Assembly (NCBI GenBank): GCA_032433765.1
Contig: JAVIAB010000160.1
Span: forward strand, 38,404,223-38,468,222
Length of the DNA: 64,000 nt
Reading direction: 5' to 3'
DNA from: Megaustenia siamemsis
Lineage: Eukaryota > Mollusca > Gastropoda > Stylommatophora > Ariophantidae
This document shows, in pieces, positions 29,385 through 58,093 of this stretch. Under the pieces are notes generated by a model. It had not been told where the DNA came from, did no database searches, and worked only from the letters and a program-made list of their open reading frames with translations. Position 1 is the first letter of the stretch; each line of letters starts with the position of its first letter. The position numbers and the translations under genes are program-made.

Positions 29385-30965
29385 AAAAAGAAGAGAAAAA
29401 GTGGCATGGTGACAGATTTACGTAGTAATGGACAAAACAAAAGCCGACGTTTCGGTCAAGTAGGCCTTCAGCCGGAACAACAAACAACAACACACAAAAA
29501 ATATATATAAGGATATGTAAACAAATCTAACTACATGGCGATAATATGCTCATCATCATCATCGAGTGCCTTCTCCGCAACGAAGATTGGCTCCATGGAT
29601 CGCCATTCTACTCTGTTTCTTGCCTTGATGATGCAGGCTTGTCATAGATTGACTTGTCCATCTTTTGATGTTACTCGTCCATGTTAGTCTTGGTCTGCCT
29701 CTGCCTCTTTTACCTTGTATTTTTCCTTCCAATATTACTTTTAATAGGTTGTTGTGTCTTTTAACATGCCCCAAAAATTGCATTTATCTTGTCTTAATTG
29801 TATTTAGTAGTTCTCTTTTTATTTTCAACTGTTTTAAAACTTCATCGTTTGTTATCTTTTGTTTCCATCCAATTCTACCTATTCTTCTATAAATCCACAT
29901 TTCAAAGGCTTCAATTTTCTGTTCTGTTTTCTTGTCCAATGTCCATGTTTCTGCACCATACATGAATATTGAGAAGATGTAACATTTTGCCATTCTTAGT
30001 TTCAGCCATGTTGATATTTGTTTTGTTGTTAGTATATTTTTCATGGCATTAAAATTACTTTTTGCCATACCTATTCTTTTGTTTATTTCAATTTTGCATT
30101 TTCCATCATTGGTTATAGTATGTCCCAGGTAGTTGTAGCTCTGGACTGTCTGCAGATGTATTCCCTCAACTGTGATATTTAATTGTAGGTCTTGAGAATT
30201 TTCTTTGTTTATGGTCATAGTTTTAGTCTTTTTGATATTCATTTCTAGTCCATATTTTTTGCTTGTTTTTGCAATTGTTGTAGGTCTTTAGGATTTTCTG
30301 CTAGTAGAATAGTATCATCAGCATATCCTAGGTTATTGATTATCTTTCCATTAATGTTTAGGCCTGGCATCTCTGAGATGTTTTTAAAGATTTGCTCAGT
30401 GTATAGATTGAACAGGCTTGGTGATAGGATGCATCCTTGTCTTACTCCTCTTTTTATGTCCATGGGTCTAGAGTTCTCCTTGTTATATCTTATTATTGCT
30501 GTTTGCCCCCAGTACAAATTACATATTAGTCGTATGTCTGTTTCATCTAGATTTATATCCTTTAGGCAGTCTATGAGTTGGTTATGGTGTATTCTATCGA
30601 AAGCTTTGGTGTAGTCTATAAAGCAGGCATATATTGGTTTGTTTACTTCTGTGTACTTTTCAATCAATGTTCTCATACTGAAATTGGCTTCTTTTGTCCC
30701 ACTGTTTTTCCTGAATCCAAATTGTTGCTCATCTAATTCAGTATTGATTTTATTCTGAATCCTTCCCTGTATAACTTTTAGTAAAATTTTTGTTACCTGG
30801 CTCATTAGGCTTATTGTTCTGAAATCACTGCATTCAACTACGCCATTCTTTTTAGGCAATAATATGCTAGATACTCAAAAAAGGAAATAAAAATAAAAGG
30901 GTTACTTCCCTGTGTTCCAGAGCGTGGTCAGTCTCCGAATGAACTAAAATGAGAAGGCGGACCAA
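29385..30965 (-). mobile_element. Hammerhead-like, Penelope-associated repeat, interrupted by RTE-d
   Basis: Outer parts (29,385-29,550 and 30,859-30,965) together match, in reverse orientation, the uninterrupted copy at 36,970-37,225. On the minus strand the left part carries GGCTGAAGGCC, a short loop and GACCGAAACGTCGGC, resembling a hammerhead ribozyme core (CUGANGA, stem II, GAAA). Such ribozymes are known in Penelope-like elements. Core position 4 and position 6 bases differ from consensus, so activity is doubtful. Confidence 0.55.
29551..30858 (-). mobile_element. RTE-d LINE, 5'-truncated, with near-complete RT domain
   Basis: About 1.3 kb in three almost contiguous minus-strand frames (30,245-30,859; 29,784-30,242; 29,559-29,783). 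Order: LPKKNGVVECSDFRTISL (RT start), FGFRKNSGTKEA, CFIDYTKAFDRIHH (catalytic D), RQGCILSPSLFNLY, NNLGYADDTILLAE (YADD near 30,313-30,324), TITNDGKCKIEI, YGAETWTLDKK, KRGRGRPRLTW, and a GATGATGATGAG tail. Two small frame breaks separate the pieces. A perfect 10-bp TSD, ATAATATGCT, at 29,541-29,550 and 30,859-30,868 defines the ends. The endonuclease is missing; one of the younger-looking LINE copies here. Confidence 0.93.
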
Positions 30966-41130: not shown

Positions 41131-41610
41131 CTGCACACGCCATAAGACATAAGGCGAAACCGCACAGAAAGTGACCACAGGCATCTGTTCTCCGTCATAC
41201 GGTATCATCATTCATCGTAAACAATTGGAATATCGAAACATGATGAAAAATGATAAAACGCACAGCTCACGGGGTGCACAAAGCACTTAACTCAGTAGCT
41301 CCTGCAACAAGCTGGACTTGGAATGTGAGGAAACTACAACAAGGAACACTGTCATACATAGCCCTCAATGGTTCCTGATCTTGTCTTGTCTTGTCTTGCA
41401 ATGTAAGAAAGCCTATATTTTTTTTCTCGCAAACATTATAATATTTTTGTCAGTTGTTGTGATCAGCACTGCGCCAGTCCGATTAAAGTATTTACTTTCC
41501 CAGAAGAGAATCGTTGGTACTCATTTTAATGACGAACCATGTGGCCAGGTCATAGCGCCAAACCGGCTGACGTAGGCGATAGAGACAAATGATAAATGAA
41601 TATTTTTATG
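41131..41610. other. No gene seen
   Basis: Includes a short TCTTG repeat near 41,380 and, at 41,555-41,580, CCAAACCGGCTGACGTAGGCG, which resembles the 3' terminal motif of RTE-b on the minus strand. Confidence 0.4.
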
Positions 41611-41920
41611 AAGGGAAACTTCCGAGGCGATAGATCAGCGAATCAATTCAGGGGAAGAGGTATGTTCACAACACTCTGAAAAAAATCACAAACAATGAAC
41701 AACAGAAGAAAAAACAAAGAACAATAGATGGTCTGAATCAGAATCGAACTTATACTCTTCGGCACAGCGTCTTGCCACGAGAAACCAAACGCTAGGACAC
41801 ACGGCCAACTAGGCTATCCTGCTTCGGGCCGTCTATTGTTCTTTGTCTTTTATCTATTGTTGATTGTTTGTGATTTTTTTCCGAGTGCTGTAAACATACC
41901 TTTTTCCTTGAAATGATTCG
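41611..41920. mobile_element. SINE-5 copy with its tail inverted (palindrome)
   Basis: Minus-strand SINE-5 (AACTTCCGAGGCGAT end at the left, tRNA-like region near 41,740-41,815) is followed by an inverted copy of its tail. Imperfect arms 41,639-41,731 and 41,829-41,920 pair around a 97-base tRNA-like loop. Same family as the units of the array at 54,025-57,294. Confidence 0.8.
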
Positions 41921-48784: not shown

Positions 48785-49052
48785 CACAAAGGAGAAAGAA
48801 TAGAACAGAAGAATAACAGGTACTCGAAAGGCGGAAAAAGTGAGATGTCTGAGAGTGGGCTACCATAAAAAAACATATGGAAGGAAAGTAGCACGGACAA
48901 AAGAGGTATATAAGTCCACCGAATTGTCTCAGTGGGGACTAGTGGAGGAGAACTATGAATAGCATGGCATAGTAGATAGACTAACGTGCCGAAACATGGG
49001 CTGCAGAGAAGGCTATGCAATAGGGAAGGAGCAACTAAAAGTAAACTATGTG

Positions 49053-49500
49053 TACGAGTGAGATACATTCATGCCTCGTGGAGTCAGCGAACCAAACTTG
49101 ACTATAAGGCGATTCTCCAAAGCAGTGACAAAGGACAATACCAGTGATACGGATCTCGTCTTAGCCCTTGTGTTCTGAGGAATTGAAATAGGAAGACACT
49201 GGAGTGCCAGTATTCTGTTGAACATCTCGAAGATGTCCACAAAATCATCCCGCGAATCGTCTCCACTCTCGCCAATATAAATCATGTGGCATCGTTGGCA
49301 TATGATGGCATAAATGATGTTTCGGGACATACATGTGAAGCCATGCTTAATCTTGAATCGTCCGTTAGGGAATACGACAGAGTCAGTGCGGAGCACATAG
49401 ACGCAGGTGATGCAGTTACGACCACAAGGGACCGTACCCAAGTGTTAATGGTCGGAGCGGGGGAGATGGCTACTAACCAGAATATCTCCCAAATTCCTGT
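49053..49500 (-). pseudogene. PLE GIY-YIG endonuclease domain
   Basis: The minus frame reads GTVPCGRNCITCVYVL, then FTCMSRNIIYAIICQRC and MIYIGESG: the IYAI..MIYIG pair is the GIY-YIG signature, preceded by the Cys-rich linker usual in this family. The end, ENRLIVKFGSLTPRGMN, matches the family C-terminus. A frameshift after IYIGESG (DDSRDDFVDIF in place of a RRFADHF-type continuation) breaks it. Confidence 0.85.
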
Positions 49501-49821
49501 CACGTTTGAAGGCGATCATAGGGGGATCACTAAAATGTAGACGAGTAGTTGGATCAGAGTGGAGAATGGAACGGTAGCGGTTGAGTATCTTCACAGCAGT
49601 CAGGTTGTGACGATGATAGGTAAGGGTGAGTATAGTTCTCTCAGAGGGGGCGGGACGGTTGGTAGGAGTGAGTGCTTCGGGATGAGAGATAAGGAGGACC
49701 GCTTGAAGGCAGACTGGAGGATCGAATCTGTATAAAGCAGGCGGCTAAAGAAACCTAACATGAGGTGAGCCTGTTGGAGGAAATCTTGGTCATCCTCGCA
49801 GATGCGAGAAAGACGCAATAA

Positions 49822-50737
49822 TTATGAAAACAGAATCGAATCACGACAAGAAGGTGAATGGGATGAAGTATAGAGAAGATAAAATTTGGCGTCTGTGGTT
49901 TTATAGAAAACCGAGATATGGAGGCTAGAAGTACCCAAGGAAACAATAAGATCTAGGAAGACAACAGAGGAAGTGGATATGCAAGATGTGGATCTTGATA
50001 GCTTTGTGATAGCTACCAATGTAGTCGATAAACCTGGAGAGGTCATCCTCAGGTAGATCGGTAATTCCGAAGCAGTCATCAATGTACCGAAGGTATATGA
50101 TGGAAATGGGACCTTGTTATGATTTGAGAATGTGGTGGTCAAGGTAACCCATAAATAGGCAAGCATAGCCGGGGCCCATCTTGGTGCCCATGGCTACTCC
50201 ACTAACTTGGTCATAGAAGTTACCATCGAACTCAAAGGTATTGAGGTTGAGTACAAGCTCAGTAAGGTGGAGAAGAGTGGCAGTATCAACAGAGGGGTGT
50301 TGTCTCTGGTCAAGAAAGAACCGTAGAGCCAGGAGGCCGTTGGAGTAGGGGATAGAGGTGTAGAGAGAATAAACATCAAGGGCGAAAAGTCGGTATGAGC
50401 GACCTCGGGAGAGAGAGATGGAAGAAAAGATTCTCAAGGCATGGTTTGTGTCCTTGACATATGAGGGAAGACTATCATGGGCTGGAAGATACTGTCTAGA
50501 TAATCAGATATGTGTTCAGTTGGGCAAGCACACGCTGACACGACTGGACGTCCTGGATTGTCGATTTTGTTAATTTTAGGGGGCATGTAGAATGATGGTT
50601 TGCAGAGAAAACTATTGGGATAATGAGGCGGGGCGCAGTAGGAGGAAGGAGGTCTCGGATCAGTTCCTTGATGGTAGATTGGACCTGCTTGTTGTGGAGG
50701 ACAGTGGCGTCGTCAGGGCGGGGTTTATAAAACATGG
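49822..50737 (-). pseudogene. PLE reverse transcriptase
   Basis: Broken frames on the minus strand hold the expected series: RPDDATVLHNKQVQSTIKEL, PSFYMPPKINKIDNPGRPVV, LDVYSLYTSIPYSNGLLALR (catalytic D), NLNTFEFDGNFYDQVSGVAM with GTKMGPGYA, LRYIDDCFGITDLPEDDL (YIDD at about 50,074-50,085) and SSVVFLDLIVSLGTSSLHIS. Frame changes occur near 50,620, 50,440, 50,130 and 50,000. The catalytic residues are still readable. Confidence 0.87.
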
Positions 50738-53009: not shown

Positions 53010-56000
53010 ATGTTAAAACGTAGAAAAGTTGATTGTGAAAATCGCATATTTAAACCTGAATGGGAATTAGATTATTTGTTCATCTTCAATAAGGATAGTA
53101 AACCTCAGTGCTTAATTTGCGTTCAAGTGTTAGCCGTTTTGAAGGAATATAATTTAAAACGGCACTATGCCACACATCATCAAAACATGTATGAGAAACA
53201 TAGCATTGAAGCTAGGAAGCTTTTGGTTGAACAGCTGAAGACAAAGTTGAATCAACAGCAAAGTATGTATACAAAGGGCAATAAAATTAAAGAGTCATCG
53301 ATCATTGCATCATATACAGTTACCTATGAGCTTGCAAAATCTAAAAAAACCCTTTACTGACGGAAATTTTGTGAAGAAATGTGCGATTCAAATGGCAAAG
53401 GCATTCGGTCAAGAAAAAATAGCCAAAGAATTTGAATCTGTGCCTCTTTCAAAACAAACTGTAGCCAGAAGAACAGAAGACATCAGTCTGCAACTGTCTC
53501 AAAGTTTAAAATCTTGTATTGAAAACTGCTCATATTTTTCGCTCGCGATTGATGAAAGTACTGACATCACTGACACTTGCCAGCTTCTTATTTTTGTTAA
53601 AGTTATCCAGGAGGATTTTACTGTTATTGAAGAATTGTTGAAAGTTTGCTCTTTGCATGACACTTGTAGAGGGACAGACATATTTTCTGCAGTTCATAGT
53701 GCCGTAGATGAAGTAGGTGTTTTGGAAAGTTGTCTGCAGTGTGTACTGATGGTTGCAAAGCTTTTATTGGTCCAAATACTGGTTTTGTTGGACTTCTAAA
53801 GCAAAACAAAATTAACGTACCTACATTGCATTGCATAATTCATCAAGAGGCCCTTTGTGCAAAGTCCATAAATCTAAAAGACACCATGGCTACTGTTGTG
53901 AAAATAACAAATTTGATAAGAGGAGGACACCAGTCTTTAAATCACAGGAAGTTTTTATCATTTTTAGAGGAAGTAGATTCTAGCTACGGTGATCTCCTGC
54001 TTTATACAGAAGTAAGATGGCTTACTGGTAACAAATAATAATACATAAATATTATTATATGGGGAACTTCCGAGGCGATAATAGGGAATAATAGAACAAA
54101 TAAGTATGTGTTAGCACTCGGAAAAATTAACAGACAAACAACAACAGAAAAAAACGAAGAACAATATATGGTCCGAAGTGGGATCGAACCCGTACTCCCT
54201 GGCACCGCGCCTTGCCACGAGAGGCCGAACGCTTGGCACACTGCCACTCAGCCAACTAAAAAATTGGCTATTGTAGTAGTGTCTTCCACGAAAGGCGCTC
54301 TCAATGACTATAGCATAGGGTAACGATCTCAGACCGGAAATAAATTGTATATTTGTACTTTCCTATTAATGCAAGTATCTCCCAGTAGGGCTGAATACTT
54401 GTGTTGTAGACAAACATTTATTGGACGAAACAGCACGAATAGTAGTTTCCAGTGGTTATATACTGGTAACAAATAATAATACATAAATATTATTATATGG
54501 GGAACTTCCGAGGCGATAATAGGGAATAATAGAACAAATAAGTATGTGTTAGCACTCGGAAAAATTAACAGACAAACAACAACAGAAAAAAACGAAGAAC
54601 AATATATGGTCCGAAGTGGGATCGAACCCGTACTCCCTGGCACCGCGCCTTGCCACGAGAGGCCGAACGCTTGGCACACTGCCACTCAGCCAACTAAAAA
54701 ATTGGCTATTGTAGTAGTGTCTTCCACGAAAGGCGCTCTCAATGACTATAGCATAGGGTAACGATCTCAGACCGGAAATAAATTGTATATTTGTACTTTC
54801 CTATTAATGCAAGTATCTCCCAGTAGGGCTGAATACTTGTGTTGTAGACAAACATTTATTGGACGAAACAGCACGAATAGTAGTTTCCAGTGGTTATATA
54901 CTGGTAACAAATAATAATACATAAATATTATTATATGGGGAACTTCCGAGGCGATAATAGGGAATAATAGAACAAATAAGTATGTGTTAGCACTCGGAAA
55001 AATTAACAGACAAACAACAACAGAAAAAAACGAAGAACAATATATGGTCCGAAGTGGGATCGAACCCGTACTCCCTAGCACCGCGCCTTGCCACGAGAGG
55101 CCGAACGCTTGGCACACTGCCACTCAGCCAACTAAAAAATTGGCTATTGTAGTAGTGTCTTCCACGAAAGGCGCTCTCAATGACTATAGCATAGGGTAAC
55201 GATCTCAGACCGGAAATAAATTGTATATTTGTACTTTCCTATTAATGCAAGTATCTCCCAGTAGGGCTGAATACTTGTGTTGTAGACAAACATTTATTGG
55301 ACGAAACAGCACGAATAGTAGTTTCCAGTGGTTATATACTGGTAACAAATAATAATACATAAATATTATTATATGGGGAACTTCCGAGGCGATAATAGGG
55401 AATAATAGAACAAATAAGTATGTGTTAGCACTCGGAAAAATTAACAGACAAACAACAACAGAAAAAAACGAAGAACAATATATGGTCCGAAGTGGGATCG
55501 AACCCGTACTCCCTGGCACCGCGCCTTGCCACGAGAGGCCGAACGCTTGGCACACTGCCACTCAGCCAACTAAAAAATTGGCTATTGTAGTAGTGTCTTC
55601 CACGAAAGGCGCTCTCAATGACTATAGCATAGGGTAACGATCTCAGACCGGAAATAAATTGTATATTTGTACTTTCCTATTAATGCAAGTATCTCCCAGT
55701 AGGGCTGAATACTTGTGTTGTAGACAAACATTTATTGGACGAAACAGCACGAATAGTAGTTTCCAGTGGTTATATACTGGTAACAAATAATAATACATAA
55801 ATATTATTATATGGGGAACTTCCGAGGCGATAATAGGGAATAACGTGGCAAGGCGCGGTGCCAGGGAGTACGGGTTCGATCCCACTTCGGACCATATATT
55901 GTTCTTCGTTTTTTTCTGTTGTTGTTTGTCTGTTAATTTTTCCGAGTGCTAACACATACTTATTTGTTCTATTATTCCCTATTATCGCCTCGGAAGTTCC

Positions 56001-58093
56001 CCATATAATAATATTTATGTATTATTATTTGTTACCAGTATATAACCACTGGAAACTACTATTCGTGCTGTTTCGTCCAATAAATGTTTGTCTACAACAC
56101 AAGTATTCAGCCCTACTGGGAGATACTTGCATTAATAGGAAAGTACAAATATACAATTTATTTCCGGTCTGAGATCGTTACCCTATGCTATAGTCATTGA
56201 GAGCGCCTTTCGTGGAAGACACTACTACAATAGCCAATTTTTTAGTTGGCTGAGTGGCAGTGTGCCAAGCGTTCGGCCTCTCGTGGCAAGGCGCGGTGCC
56301 AGGGAGTACGGGTTCGATCCCACTTCGGACCATATATTGTTCTTCGTTTTTTTCTGTTGTTGTTTGTCTGTTAATTTTTCCGAGTGCTAACACATACTTA
56401 TTTGTTCTATTATTCCCTATTATCGCCTCGGAAGTTCCCCATATAATAATATTTATGTATTATTATTTGTTACCAGTATATAACCACTGGAAACTACTAT
56501 TCGTGCTGTTTCGTCCAATAAATGTTTGTCTACAACACAAGTATTCAGCCCTACTGGGAGATACTTGCATTAATAGGAAAGTACAAATATACAATTTATT
56601 TCCGGTCTGAGATCGTTACCCTATGCTATAGTCATTGAGAGCGCCTTTCGTGGAAGACACTACTACAATAGCCAATTTTTTAGTTGGCTGAGTGGCAGTG
56701 TGCCAAGCGTTCGGCCTCTCGTGGCAAGGCGCGGTGCCAGGGAGTACGGGTTCGATCCCACTTCGGACCATATATTGTTCTTCGTTTTTTTCTGTTGTTG
56801 TTTGTCTGTTAATTTTTCCGAGTGCTAACACATACTTATTTGTTCTATTATTCCCTATTATCGCCTCGGAAGTTCCCCATATAATAATATTTATGTATTA
56901 TTATTTGTTACCAGTATATAACCACTGGAAACTACTATTCGTGCTGTTTCGTCCAATAAATGTTTGTCTACAACACAAGTATTCAGCCCTACTGGGAGAT
57001 ACTTGCATTAATAGGAAAGTACAAATATACAATTTATTTCCGGTCTGAGATCGTTACCCTATGCTATAGTCATTGAGAGCGCCTTTCGTGGAAGACACTA
57101 CTACAATAGCCAATTTTTTAGTTGGCTGAGTGGCAGTGTGCCAAGCGTTCGGCCTCTCGTGGCAAGGCGCGGTGCCAGGGAGTACGGGTTCGATAACACT
57201 TCGGACCATATATTGTTCTTCGTTTTTTTCTGTTGTTGTTTGTCTGTTAATTTTTCCGAGTGCTAACACATACTTATTTGTTCTATTATTCCTCAGTAAG
57301 ATGGCTTAGTCGAGGGAAATGTTTAATAATATTTTTTGAACTGAAGAATGACATTTTTGACTTCCTGCGAGAGAACTTACCATGCTCCATTGATCTTCAA
57401 CATGCACTCAAAGACATTAATTTCCTTCATAATCTGGCATATCTCACAGACATCACACAACATTTGAACATATTGAATTTGCAGCTACAAGGGGAAAAGC
57501 AAACCATTTTTCAATTGATGGGATATGTTGATGGTTTTAAAAAGAAGCTGAATCTATTTAGACTTTCTTTGCAAAAAAATGATCTGTTCCATTTTTCAAG
57601 TTGTAAGCAGTTGTTGTCAGAGATAGAAAGTGCAAACTTCAGTAAGTACGCAGCTGACATTGAACATTTGATTTGTGAATTTGATCGACGATTTCAAGAT
57701 TTTGAAATGTTTCGTCCGCAAACGGAACTTTTTAATAACCCAATTAAGTGCACAGTGGAGTGCCAGCCATCAGATCTTCAACTAGAGTTGTGTGACCTTC
57801 AGTGTGACCCCTTCCTCAGTACTGTAAAGGCATTAGGAGCTGACTTCTGGAAATTGCTACCAAATGAACGTTACCCGTGTCTGAGAAAATGGGCACTAAA
57901 GATGTGCTCTATATTCGGCAGCACATATCTCTGCGAGACAACATTCTCTTCCATGAAGTTAATTAAATCTAAGACCAGGAACAGAATGACCGATTCGACA
58001 TTGTCCCATACTCTCCGAATCGCCACGTCAAAAATGGAAGTGGACTTCAAATCTCTGGTGGAAAGCTGTGACAAGTCACAATCGTCGCACTGA
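53010..58093 (+). pseudogene. hAT transposase, GTF2IRD2/ZBED-like type, interrupted
   Basis: Frames 53,010-53,347, ~53,345-53,725, ~53,730-54,024 and 57,309-58,093 together cover a whole transposase. N-terminus: LKRRKVDCENR and a BED-type zinc finger (PQCLICVQVLAVLKEY, KRHYATHH). Catalytic core: FSLAIDESTDITDTCQLLIF, CTDGCKAFIGPNTG, LHCIIHQEALCAK, EVRWL. C-terminal dimerisation region: ICEFDRRFQDF and STYLCETTFSSMKLIKSKTR, ending near QSSH. The closest family known to me is the transposase from which GTF2IRD2-like host proteins derive. A one-base gain in an A-run near 53,345 and a one-base loss near 53,727 shift the frame out and back; a 3.27-kb array splits it after EVRWL. The C-terminal 260 codons are intact. 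Confidence 0.93.
54025..57294. repeat. Palindromic array of 438-bp units (SINE-5-containing) inside hAT
   Basis: Four units in one orientation (54,025-54,462; 54,463-54,900; 54,901-55,338; 55,339-55,776) plus 66 bases, then a switch at about 55,843 and about 3.3 units in the opposite orientation to 57,294. Units are almost identical. Each has a tRNA-like SINE-5 (box A GGCTGAGTGGCAG, box B GGTTCGATCCC) and ~230 bases of other sequence including GGACGAAACAGC. The array is flanked by a perfect 14-bp TSD, AGTAAGATGGCTTA, at 54,011-54,024 and 57,295-57,308. Repeated 118- and 71-codon frames are repeat artefacts. Confidence 0.95.

What the first reader, a model, noticed from the sequence alone, without database searches (positions are those of the whole stretch)
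54011..57308. Palindromic 438-bp array inserted with a 14-bp TSD into a hAT transposase
Seen directly: four near-identical 438-bp units in one direction, a switch at ~55,843, about 3.3 units in the other, all bracketed by an exact 14-bp duplication of transposase coding sequence. A TSD that long points to target-primed reverse transcription, not DNA transposition. Either one SINE-bearing copy inserted and later amplified with inversion, or a multimeric RNA template was integrated. The inverted arms exceed 1.4 kb, so a transcript would form long dsRNA, a possible small-RNA source.
Basis: partly seen in the sequence, partly recalled or inferred. Interest (0 to 1): 0.85.

Follow-up and report, generated by a model that had tools for sequence, protein, structure and literature searches.

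The report
Two-armed SINE arrays made Penelope-style
The back-to-back repeat array in a broken transposase is one of very many copies of a small tRNA-like mobile element whose insertions carry the signature of Penelope retrotransposons, apparently two DNA copies started at two fixed points of one kind of RNA, one on each side of the cut, which offers a way to study how this poorly understood enzyme class inserts DNA.

Summary
In detail: 4.16 units of 438 bp on the minus strand, a switch at 55,843/55,844, 3.31 units on the plus strand, and an exact 14-bp duplication (54011-54024, 57295-57308) in a hAT transposase frame that closes when the insert is removed. It is not a one-off. The unit has tRNA-type boxes A and B; a 36-mer of it has 17,844 matches (up to 3 mismatches) in the 2.59-Gb genome. 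All 16 distinct strand switches in two partial listings are divergent. Of 14 insertions held (window included) 12 are two-armed; of the 11 with both outer ends held, 10 have one end at unit position ~180 (site A) and the other at ~240 (site B), either way round. TSDs of 12-16 bp flank 11 of 13. A Penelope-like (PLE) family in the same genome shows the same signature: 15 of 15 switches divergent, and paired ends about 67-76 nt apart in the 3 of 4 fetched insertions with both ends resolved. Best reading: a tRNA-derived non-autonomous element integrated by PLE-type machinery through paired priming at two fixed RNA sites, one per target strand, on a circular or multimeric RNA. Partner identity and RNA form are inferred.

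The parts
53251..54024 (+). 5' part of the hAT transposase target up to and including TSD copy 1
   Evidence: open frame continues into the 3' part when the insert is removed; a frame switch lies further upstream
54011..54024 (.). target-site duplication, copy 1 (AGTAAGATGGCTTA)
54023..55843 (-). left arm: 4.16 units of 438 bp, sense strand reads leftwards; outer end at unit position 241 (site B)
55843..55844 (.). centre junction (unit position 173 on the minus arm joined to 45 on the plus arm), no filler
55844..57292 (+). right arm: 3.31 units, sense strand reads rightwards; outer end at unit position 179 (site A)
56247..56257 (+). box A of one unit (TGGCTGAGTGG), unit position 10
56311..56320 (+). 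box B of one unit (GGTTCGATCC), unit position 74; changed by two bases in the last, partial unit
56347..56353 (+). run of 7 T (unit 110-116), Pol III terminator-like, between box B and sites A/B
56417..56478 (+). segment between site A (about unit 180) and site B (about unit 241) in one unit; at the outer ends it is present on one arm only
57295..57308 (.). target-site duplication, copy 2
57309..58093 (+). 3' part of the hAT transposase target (Dimer_Tnp_hAT)
41585..41905 (.). old relative (75-79% identical) with the same divergent layout: minus arm to unit 233, plus arm to unit 166; no TSD test was made
49046..50503 (-). decayed Penelope-like element (RT and GIY-YIG pieces) of a family with open frames of up to 948 aa elsewhere in the genome

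Best explanation
The array is one insertion of a tRNA-derived, non-autonomous retroelement that uses Penelope-type (PLE) machinery. SHOWN in the copies examined: an insertion is usually a pair of arms whose sense strands point away from each other; one target edge joins the unit at site A (about 180) and the other at site B (about 240); arm lengths and the centre join are variable; a 12-16 bp TSD usually flanks it; a PLE family of the same genome has the same kind of paired ends, direction and TSD size. INFERRED: the PLE protein, perhaps as a dimer, cuts both target strands about 14 nt apart; each freed 3' end primes synthesis on element RNA, one at site A and one at site B; both cDNAs run towards the 5' side of the RNA, through or around repeated units, until they stop and are joined in the middle by microhomology or filler. 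Because synthesis often runs past the unit's start, the template must be multimeric or circular; a unit-length circle copied by rolling-circle reverse transcription is the simplest origin of tandem units, but this is not shown.
For: Direction: 16 of 16 distinct opposite-strand neighbours within 1.5 kb are minus-then-plus (11 from 57 typed places of the listing, 6 from the 100 listed places, one shared); 0 the other way. Both listings show only the first exact matches. Ends: of 11 two-armed insertions with both outer ends held, 10 are A plus B, none A plus A or B plus B; if each end chose A or B independently, 10 of 10 has probability about 0.001. TSD 12-16 bp in 11 of 13 insertions with both flanks held. 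Homogeneous units: in the C1:86.4-Mb array 17 of 17 plus units share five variants and its minus arm the two it covers; both arms share at least one variant in 4 of the 9 fetched two-armed insertions with any variant in the overlap (L023, L024, L028, L036). PLE: among 150 scored RT hits, 15 of 15 strand switches within 12 kb are divergent, and 7 of 8 same-strand neighbours lie 3.95-3.99 kb apart; ends at slice positions 2038 and 2105-2114 in 3 of 3 insertions with both ends resolved, of 4 tried. Published biochemistry: a lizard PLE protein cuts and extends both target strands and starts synthesis at two adjacent internal RNA sites (PMC11167929, main text section); Penelope insertions are described with inverted pLTRs, TSD and an optional tail on one of them (PMC3846280, passages and discussion). 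Counts fall past site A as predicted: 17,844 before A, 14,595 between A and B, same pattern length.
Against: The PLE slice I hold shares no significant sequence with the unit (best blastn E 0.72); shared features near the sites are short, and the stem test is weak (54 of 500 shuffles do as well for the unit, 5 of 500 for the PLE); in the longer PLE fold the stem is not in the minimum-energy structure. Either another PLE family is the partner, or recognition is structural. No hammerhead was found in the unit, so how a circle would form is unknown. In 5 of 9 two-armed insertions with variants in the overlap (L027, L030, L032, L033, L034) no variant is shared by both arms; later mutation may explain this, but it weakens the one-unit template. 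Some shared variants (280A>T, 373A>T, 41C>T) recur in several insertions, so they mark subfamilies. Homogeneity could also come from gene conversion between arms or from a transcript of an already homogeneous array. The 7-T run would stop a Pol III transcript before the priming sites. Two of 14 insertions held are one-armed (L021 from B; L025 from A, without TSD), L028 has no TSD, and one L033 end lies near U200-204. In 200 kb around the window three further older pieces (L001, L002, L003) are one-directional. In the listing 8 of 14 multi-hit clusters are one-stranded, though that probe cannot see arms that stop at A. The fetched copies are the first exact hits on one contig, so they favour young copies. 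The drop in counts past A may partly reflect different mutability.
Confidence: 0.7

Rival explanations
1. LINE-type twin priming: a LINE mobilises a SINE multimer, and the inversion is the ordinary L1-style twin-priming by-product.
For: TSD size, microhomology at joins and inversion fit twin priming in general.
Against: In LINE twin priming (recalled, not looked up) the first site is the RNA 3' end or tail and the second is variable, and inversions are a minority. Here both sites are fixed and internal to the repeating unit, no 3' tail is seen at the ends printed, and 12 of 14 insertions held are two-armed. The PLE family shows the same paired layout.
Confidence: 0.13
2. One monomer inserted and was later amplified and inverted by DNA recombination.
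For: Units within an array can be nearly identical; the C1:86.4-Mb array repeats a two-unit spacing variant 17 units apart (spacings; the first pair read), which may reflect DNA-level expansion.
Against: Short insertions with arms of 66-219 bp already have both arms, both ends and a TSD (L022, L026, L027, L032); the same end pair recurs in independent loci.
Confidence: 0.08
3. A DNA transposon or MITE with long terminal inverted repeats.
For: Inverted arms flanked by a duplication.
Against: The outer ends of the two arms are different sequences (site A versus site B, about 60 nt out of register), arm lengths are unequal and arbitrary, and TSD length varies from 12 to 16.
Confidence: 0.02
4. 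Self-priming (fold-back) on a template, as proposed for head-to-head Penelope copies in bdelloid rotifers.
For: Two of 12 centre joins have the same unit coordinate on both sides with filler between them (L022, L026), and a third (L030) joins at a palindromic 9-mer; PMC3846280 discussion.
Against: 9 of 12 centres have unequal coordinates, and fold-back would not by itself put one end at A and the other at B.
Confidence: 0.07

Closest known systems
Penelope-like elements with GIY-YIG endonuclease
   Same: Tandem units, divergent (head-to-head) arms, TSD, two alternative end points tens of nt apart (the published optional tail), both target strands used.
   Different: The unit is 438 bp, encodes no long ORF, carries tRNA-type boxes A and B, and no hammerhead was recognised.
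Animal non-LTR retrozymes (small circular RNAs with type I hammerheads)
   Same: Within the published unit size range of 150-450 bp, low GC, tandem multimers, TSDs longer than 4 bp, proposed mobilisation by PLEs (PMC7229834 passages; PMC7761336 passages).
   Different: No hammerhead found by Rfam at E<=10 or by core motif; tRNA-like promoter boxes instead; the word 'inverted' has 0 occurrences in PMC7229834.
tRNA-derived SINEs
   Same: Box A and box B 64 nt apart, no long ORF, very high copy number.
   Different: No 3' tail of simple-repeat type at the insertion ends, multimeric and two-armed insertions, a 7-T run before the priming sites, and a PLE-like rather than LINE-like signature. SINEs are described as LINE-mobilised (start of the abstract of PMC7245038 in the listing).

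Membership tests
Penelope-like elements (insertion structure) | divergent inverted arms and tandem units | tested here: met
   16 of 16 listed switches divergent for the 438-bp family, 15 of 15 for the PLE family; 12 of 14 insertions held are two-armed
Penelope-like elements (insertion structure) | two alternative end points, a tail on one side | tested here: met
   10 of 11 two-armed insertions A plus B; PLE 3 of 3 resolved, of 4 tried
Penelope-like elements (insertion structure) | target-site duplication | tested here: met
   12-16 bp in 11 of 13 insertions with both flanks; the rotifer copies I read of have 8-10 bp, some none
Penelope-like elements (autonomous) | ORF with RT and GIY-YIG endonuclease | tested here: not met
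   in the list (stop to stop, at least 120 aa) no frame lies in the arms except the first 42 bp of the flanking hAT frame
Penelope-like elements | hammerhead ribozyme motif in pLTR | tested here: not met
   no Rfam hit at E<=10 in 53900-57400, no CTGANGA in the unit; a hammerhead-like stretch is visible in the PLE slice, but Rfam does not score that one either, so the test is of limited power
Animal retrozyme | type I hammerhead ribozyme | tested here: not met
Animal retrozyme | short tandem units, GC below 50% | tested here: met
   438 bp, about 40% GC
Animal retrozyme | circular RNA in tissues | not testable with these tools
   no RNA data
tRNA-derived SINE | box A and box B at Pol III spacing | tested here: met
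   unit positions 10 and 74; 1 of 2000 mononucleotide shuffles has such a pair; ARAGORN finds no tRNA
tRNA-derived SINE | insertion end at a 3' tail (A-rich or simple repeat) | tested here: not met
   ends are internal sites A and B of the repeating unit
tRNA-derived SINE | mobilised by a LINE | tested here: inconclusive
   insertion structure argues for a PLE; no comparison with LINE tails was made
TIR DNA transposon / MITE | identical inverted termini and fixed TSD length | tested here: not met
   outer ends differ (site A versus B); TSD 12-16

The most novel reading that the evidence does not exclude
A new class of SINE: a Pol III-box, hammerhead-free, circular-RNA element mobilised by a Penelope-like protein, integrated by obligatory paired priming in which one RNA offers two fixed start sites, one for each target strand, followed by rolling-circle reverse transcription on both sides. 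The thousands of copies would be an in vivo record of the PLE integration mechanism.
Probability: 0.32. Interest if true: 0.8.

Novelty: new variant of a known kind. Interest (0 to 1): 0.62.

Why it matters
How Penelope-like elements integrate is an open question: in vitro work showed both strands cut and two adjacent start sites on the RNA (PMC11167929), and head-to-head copies were earlier put down to self-priming on an antisense template (PMC3846280). This family offers thousands of small, readable insertions; in those examined the two start sites are nearly always paired, one per target strand. That favours coordinated dual priming on a sense RNA and can be tested by counting. It would also extend SINE biology to a non-LINE partner. 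Long near-perfect inverted arms are a possible source of dsRNA and of assembly and copy-number trouble.

Tried and rejected
Hammerhead or any Rfam family in the unit: none. Intact tRNA gene: none by ARAGORN; the acceptor stem does not pair by eye. dna-mode genome search found nothing, not even the window's own copy, because common words are skipped; pattern mode was used instead. Sequence similarity between unit and PLE slice: nothing significant. A shared RNA stem around site A: suggestive only. The copy-number step past site B could not be measured: that pattern was answered 'busy' each time. No paper on a tRNA-derived SINE mobilised by a PLE appeared in the listings of my searches; I saw titles and starts of abstracts there, and this library lacks most subscription journals, so absence is weak. 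Searches listed no paper that by its title describes this family. Papers seen only in passages or parts and not used for claims: PMC13282606 (outline and one section), PMC6685494 (passages), PMC9795677 (passages).

Rows dropped before counts: L029, L031, L035 and L037-L050 are further hits in the arrays of L028, L030, L034 and L036. The 14 insertions held are the window array and L021, L022, L023, L024, L025, L026, L027, L028, L030, L032, L033, L034 and L036. L021 and L025 are one-armed and L036 lacks its right end, so these three are not in the end count; L036 is not in the TSD count. The TSDs of L021 and L027 were read by eye from the prints, that of the PLE at C106.
Full report
What is there. 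The window holds 4.158 units of 438 bp on the minus strand (54023-55843) followed without a gap by 3.308 units on the plus strand (55844-57292); 3 positions differ from a common unit. An exact 14-bp duplication, AGTAAGATGGCTTA, flanks the array at 54011-54024 and 57295-57308. Removing the array and one duplication copy gives a continuous hAT transposase frame over the junction, whose 3' part matches Dimer_Tnp_hAT. So this is an insertion.

The unit. I number it (U) from the T-run just before box A, sense being the plus strand of the right arm. It has box A (U10 TGGCTGAGTGG) and box B (U74 GGTTCGATCC); 1 of 2000 mononucleotide shuffles has such a pair. ARAGORN finds no tRNA and Rfam nothing even at E<=10. 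A run of seven T at U110-116 lies downstream of box B.

A genome-wide family. In the window's own genome (2.59 Gb, 155 contigs, unnamed) a 42-mer of the unit (U149-190) has 13,978 matches with up to 3 mismatches, a 36-mer before site A (U136-171) 17,844 and a 36-mer between sites A and B (U190-225) 14,595, with 0 in the reversed control each time. Neighbouring same-strand hits lie mostly 432-440 bp apart, the longest run seen being 29 plus-strand hits at C1:86.4 Mb. Wherever strands switch within 1.5 kb, the order is minus then plus: 11 of 11 in the 57 typed places of the listing and 6 of 6 in the 100 places of the listing, 16 distinct switches in all, none the other way. Against this, 8 of the 14 multi-hit clusters of the listing are one-stranded; that probe cannot see an arm that stops at site A.

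Two fixed ends. I hold 14 separate insertions of the family beyond old pieces: the window array and 13 fetched ones, the first exact hits on one contig. Twelve are two-armed; L021 and L025 have one arm. The arms run outwards to two different unit positions: site A, about U175-186 (sequence TATTATTCC), and site B, about U230-244 (TTTGTTACCAG). Of the 11 two-armed insertions with both ends held (window, L022, L023, L024, L026, L027, L028, L030, L032, L033, L034), 10 have one A end and one B end, in either orientation; L033 has A and a position near U200-204. L036 shows B on the left and its right end is not held. TSDs of 12-16 bp are seen in 11 of the 13 with both flanks held (not in L028, and not in L025). 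Bases at the ends are often shared with the target. Of 12 centre joins 9 have unequal unit coordinates, with microhomology, no overlap or 5-50 nt of filler; two (L022, L026) have the same coordinate on both sides with filler between, and L030 joins at a palindromic 9-mer. The old relative at 41585-41905 of the window, 75-79% identical, has the same divergent layout with ends at U233 and U166. Three older pieces in the 200 kb around the window (L001, L002, L003) are one-directional.

How uniform the units are. In the C1:86.4-Mb array the minus arm and 17 of 17 plus-strand units examined share 67G>T and 204A>T, and the plus units also share 264T>C, 280A>T and 340G>A. Comparing arms where both cover the same positions, L023, L024, L028 and L036 share at least one variant; L027, L030, L032, L033 and L034 show arm-specific variants only; L022 and L026 have none. 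Some shared variants recur in other insertions, so they mark subfamilies. A circular or homogeneous multimeric RNA with later mutation explains this; gene conversion between arms is an alternative. In the C1 array a pair of shorter, 437-bp steps recurs 17 units later (spacings; the first pair carries a 2-bp deletion at site B), which a unit circle alone does not explain.

A Penelope-like family does the same. The window's decayed PLE (49046-50503, minus strand) belongs to a family with open frames of up to 948 aa elsewhere; 150 hits were scored of 4724 candidates. Its protein has relatives with RVT_1 and GIY-YIG domains, the best named ones in land snails and slugs (110 proteins at E <= 0.001); the slice itself hits GIY-YIG at E 0.00054, below the curated cut-off. 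Among the 150 hits, strand switches within 12 kb are minus-then-plus in 15 of 15, and 7 of 8 same-strand neighbours lie 3.95-3.99 kb apart, one 4.49 kb. I fetched the predicted ends of four divergent PLE insertions. Three have both ends resolved, each with one end at slice position 2038 and the other at 2105-2114 (C106; C155; C123). In the fourth (C59) one end is at 2108 and the other was not in my slice. TSDs: 14 bp at C106 (read by eye), 11-13 bp at C123, and uninformative at C155, which lies in a local tandem repeat.

Mechanism. Both arms have the strand polarity expected if the freed 3' ends of both target strands prime synthesis on a sense RNA and run inwards. Fixed, different, internal start sites on each side argue for one coordinated complex. 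A purified lizard PLE protein cuts and extends both strands and starts at two adjacent internal RNA sites (PMC11167929, main text section). The rotifer Penelope paper describes inverted pLTRs, TSDs and an optional tail on one side, proposes self-priming, and shows that pLTRs can move an unrelated gene in trans (PMC3846280, passages and discussion). I therefore infer PLE-type paired priming. Arms that cross the unit start show that the template is multimeric or circular. The Pol III boxes may be only ancestral, because the 7-T run precedes both sites.

Partner and structure. The PLE slice has no significant similarity to the unit. By eye there are positional resemblances: AACATAC or AACACATAC some 21-35 nt before A, TTCC at A, a stem enclosing A (TTCCGAG/CTCGGAA in the unit, GTAAAGCT/AGCTTTAC in the PLE) and a hairpin before B. 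Shuffles make the stem weak evidence (54 of 500 and 5 of 500), and the longer PLE fold does not use it. The exact partner is open.

Known and new. Divergent, tandem, tailed insertions are known for autonomous PLEs, and reviews propose PLEs as movers of hammerhead retrozymes (PMC7761336, PMC11722881, passages; unit features from PMC7229834, passages). I found no report of a tRNA-derived, hammerhead-free family inserted this way in the listings of searches. I call it a new variant of a known kind.

Noticed in passing
G000 C1:86406541-86419341 (L036-L050 cover up to 86414260): Array of a short minus arm and at least 29 plus units; a pair of 437-bp steps recurs exactly 17 units later (spacings), the first pair carrying the same 2-bp deletion at site B.
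   Followed up: partly
L022 1604-1655; L026 1401-1416; L030 2364-2372: Centre joins with the same unit coordinate on both sides (87/87 with 50-nt filler, 64/64 with 14-nt filler, 193/193 at a palindromic 9-mer). Possibly both cDNAs ran to the same RNA 5' end.
   Followed up: partly
window 41585-41905: Old, 75-79% identical member of the family with the same divergent two-arm layout.
   Followed up: partly
window 49046-50503 minus; L051: Penelope-like family with open frames of up to 948 aa, tandem units of about 3.97 kb and a hammerhead-like stretch (CTGCTGAAGGCCTATTGGCCGAAACGTCG) upstream of its end sites, not scored by Rfam.
   Followed up: partly
L058 1-120 and L059 120-250: The PLE insertion at C123:66.29 Mb sits beside other tRNA-like sequence with a box-B-like GGTTCGATCC.
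   Followed up: no
window 53720-53800: The hAT frame switches from one frame to another some 200-300 bp upstream of the insertion, so the transposase is broken independently of the array.
   Followed up: no
window 1-64000: 73 tandem-repeat rows, many of them minisatellites; a reverse-transcriptase (RVT_1) piece at 30245-30874 minus.
   Followed up: no
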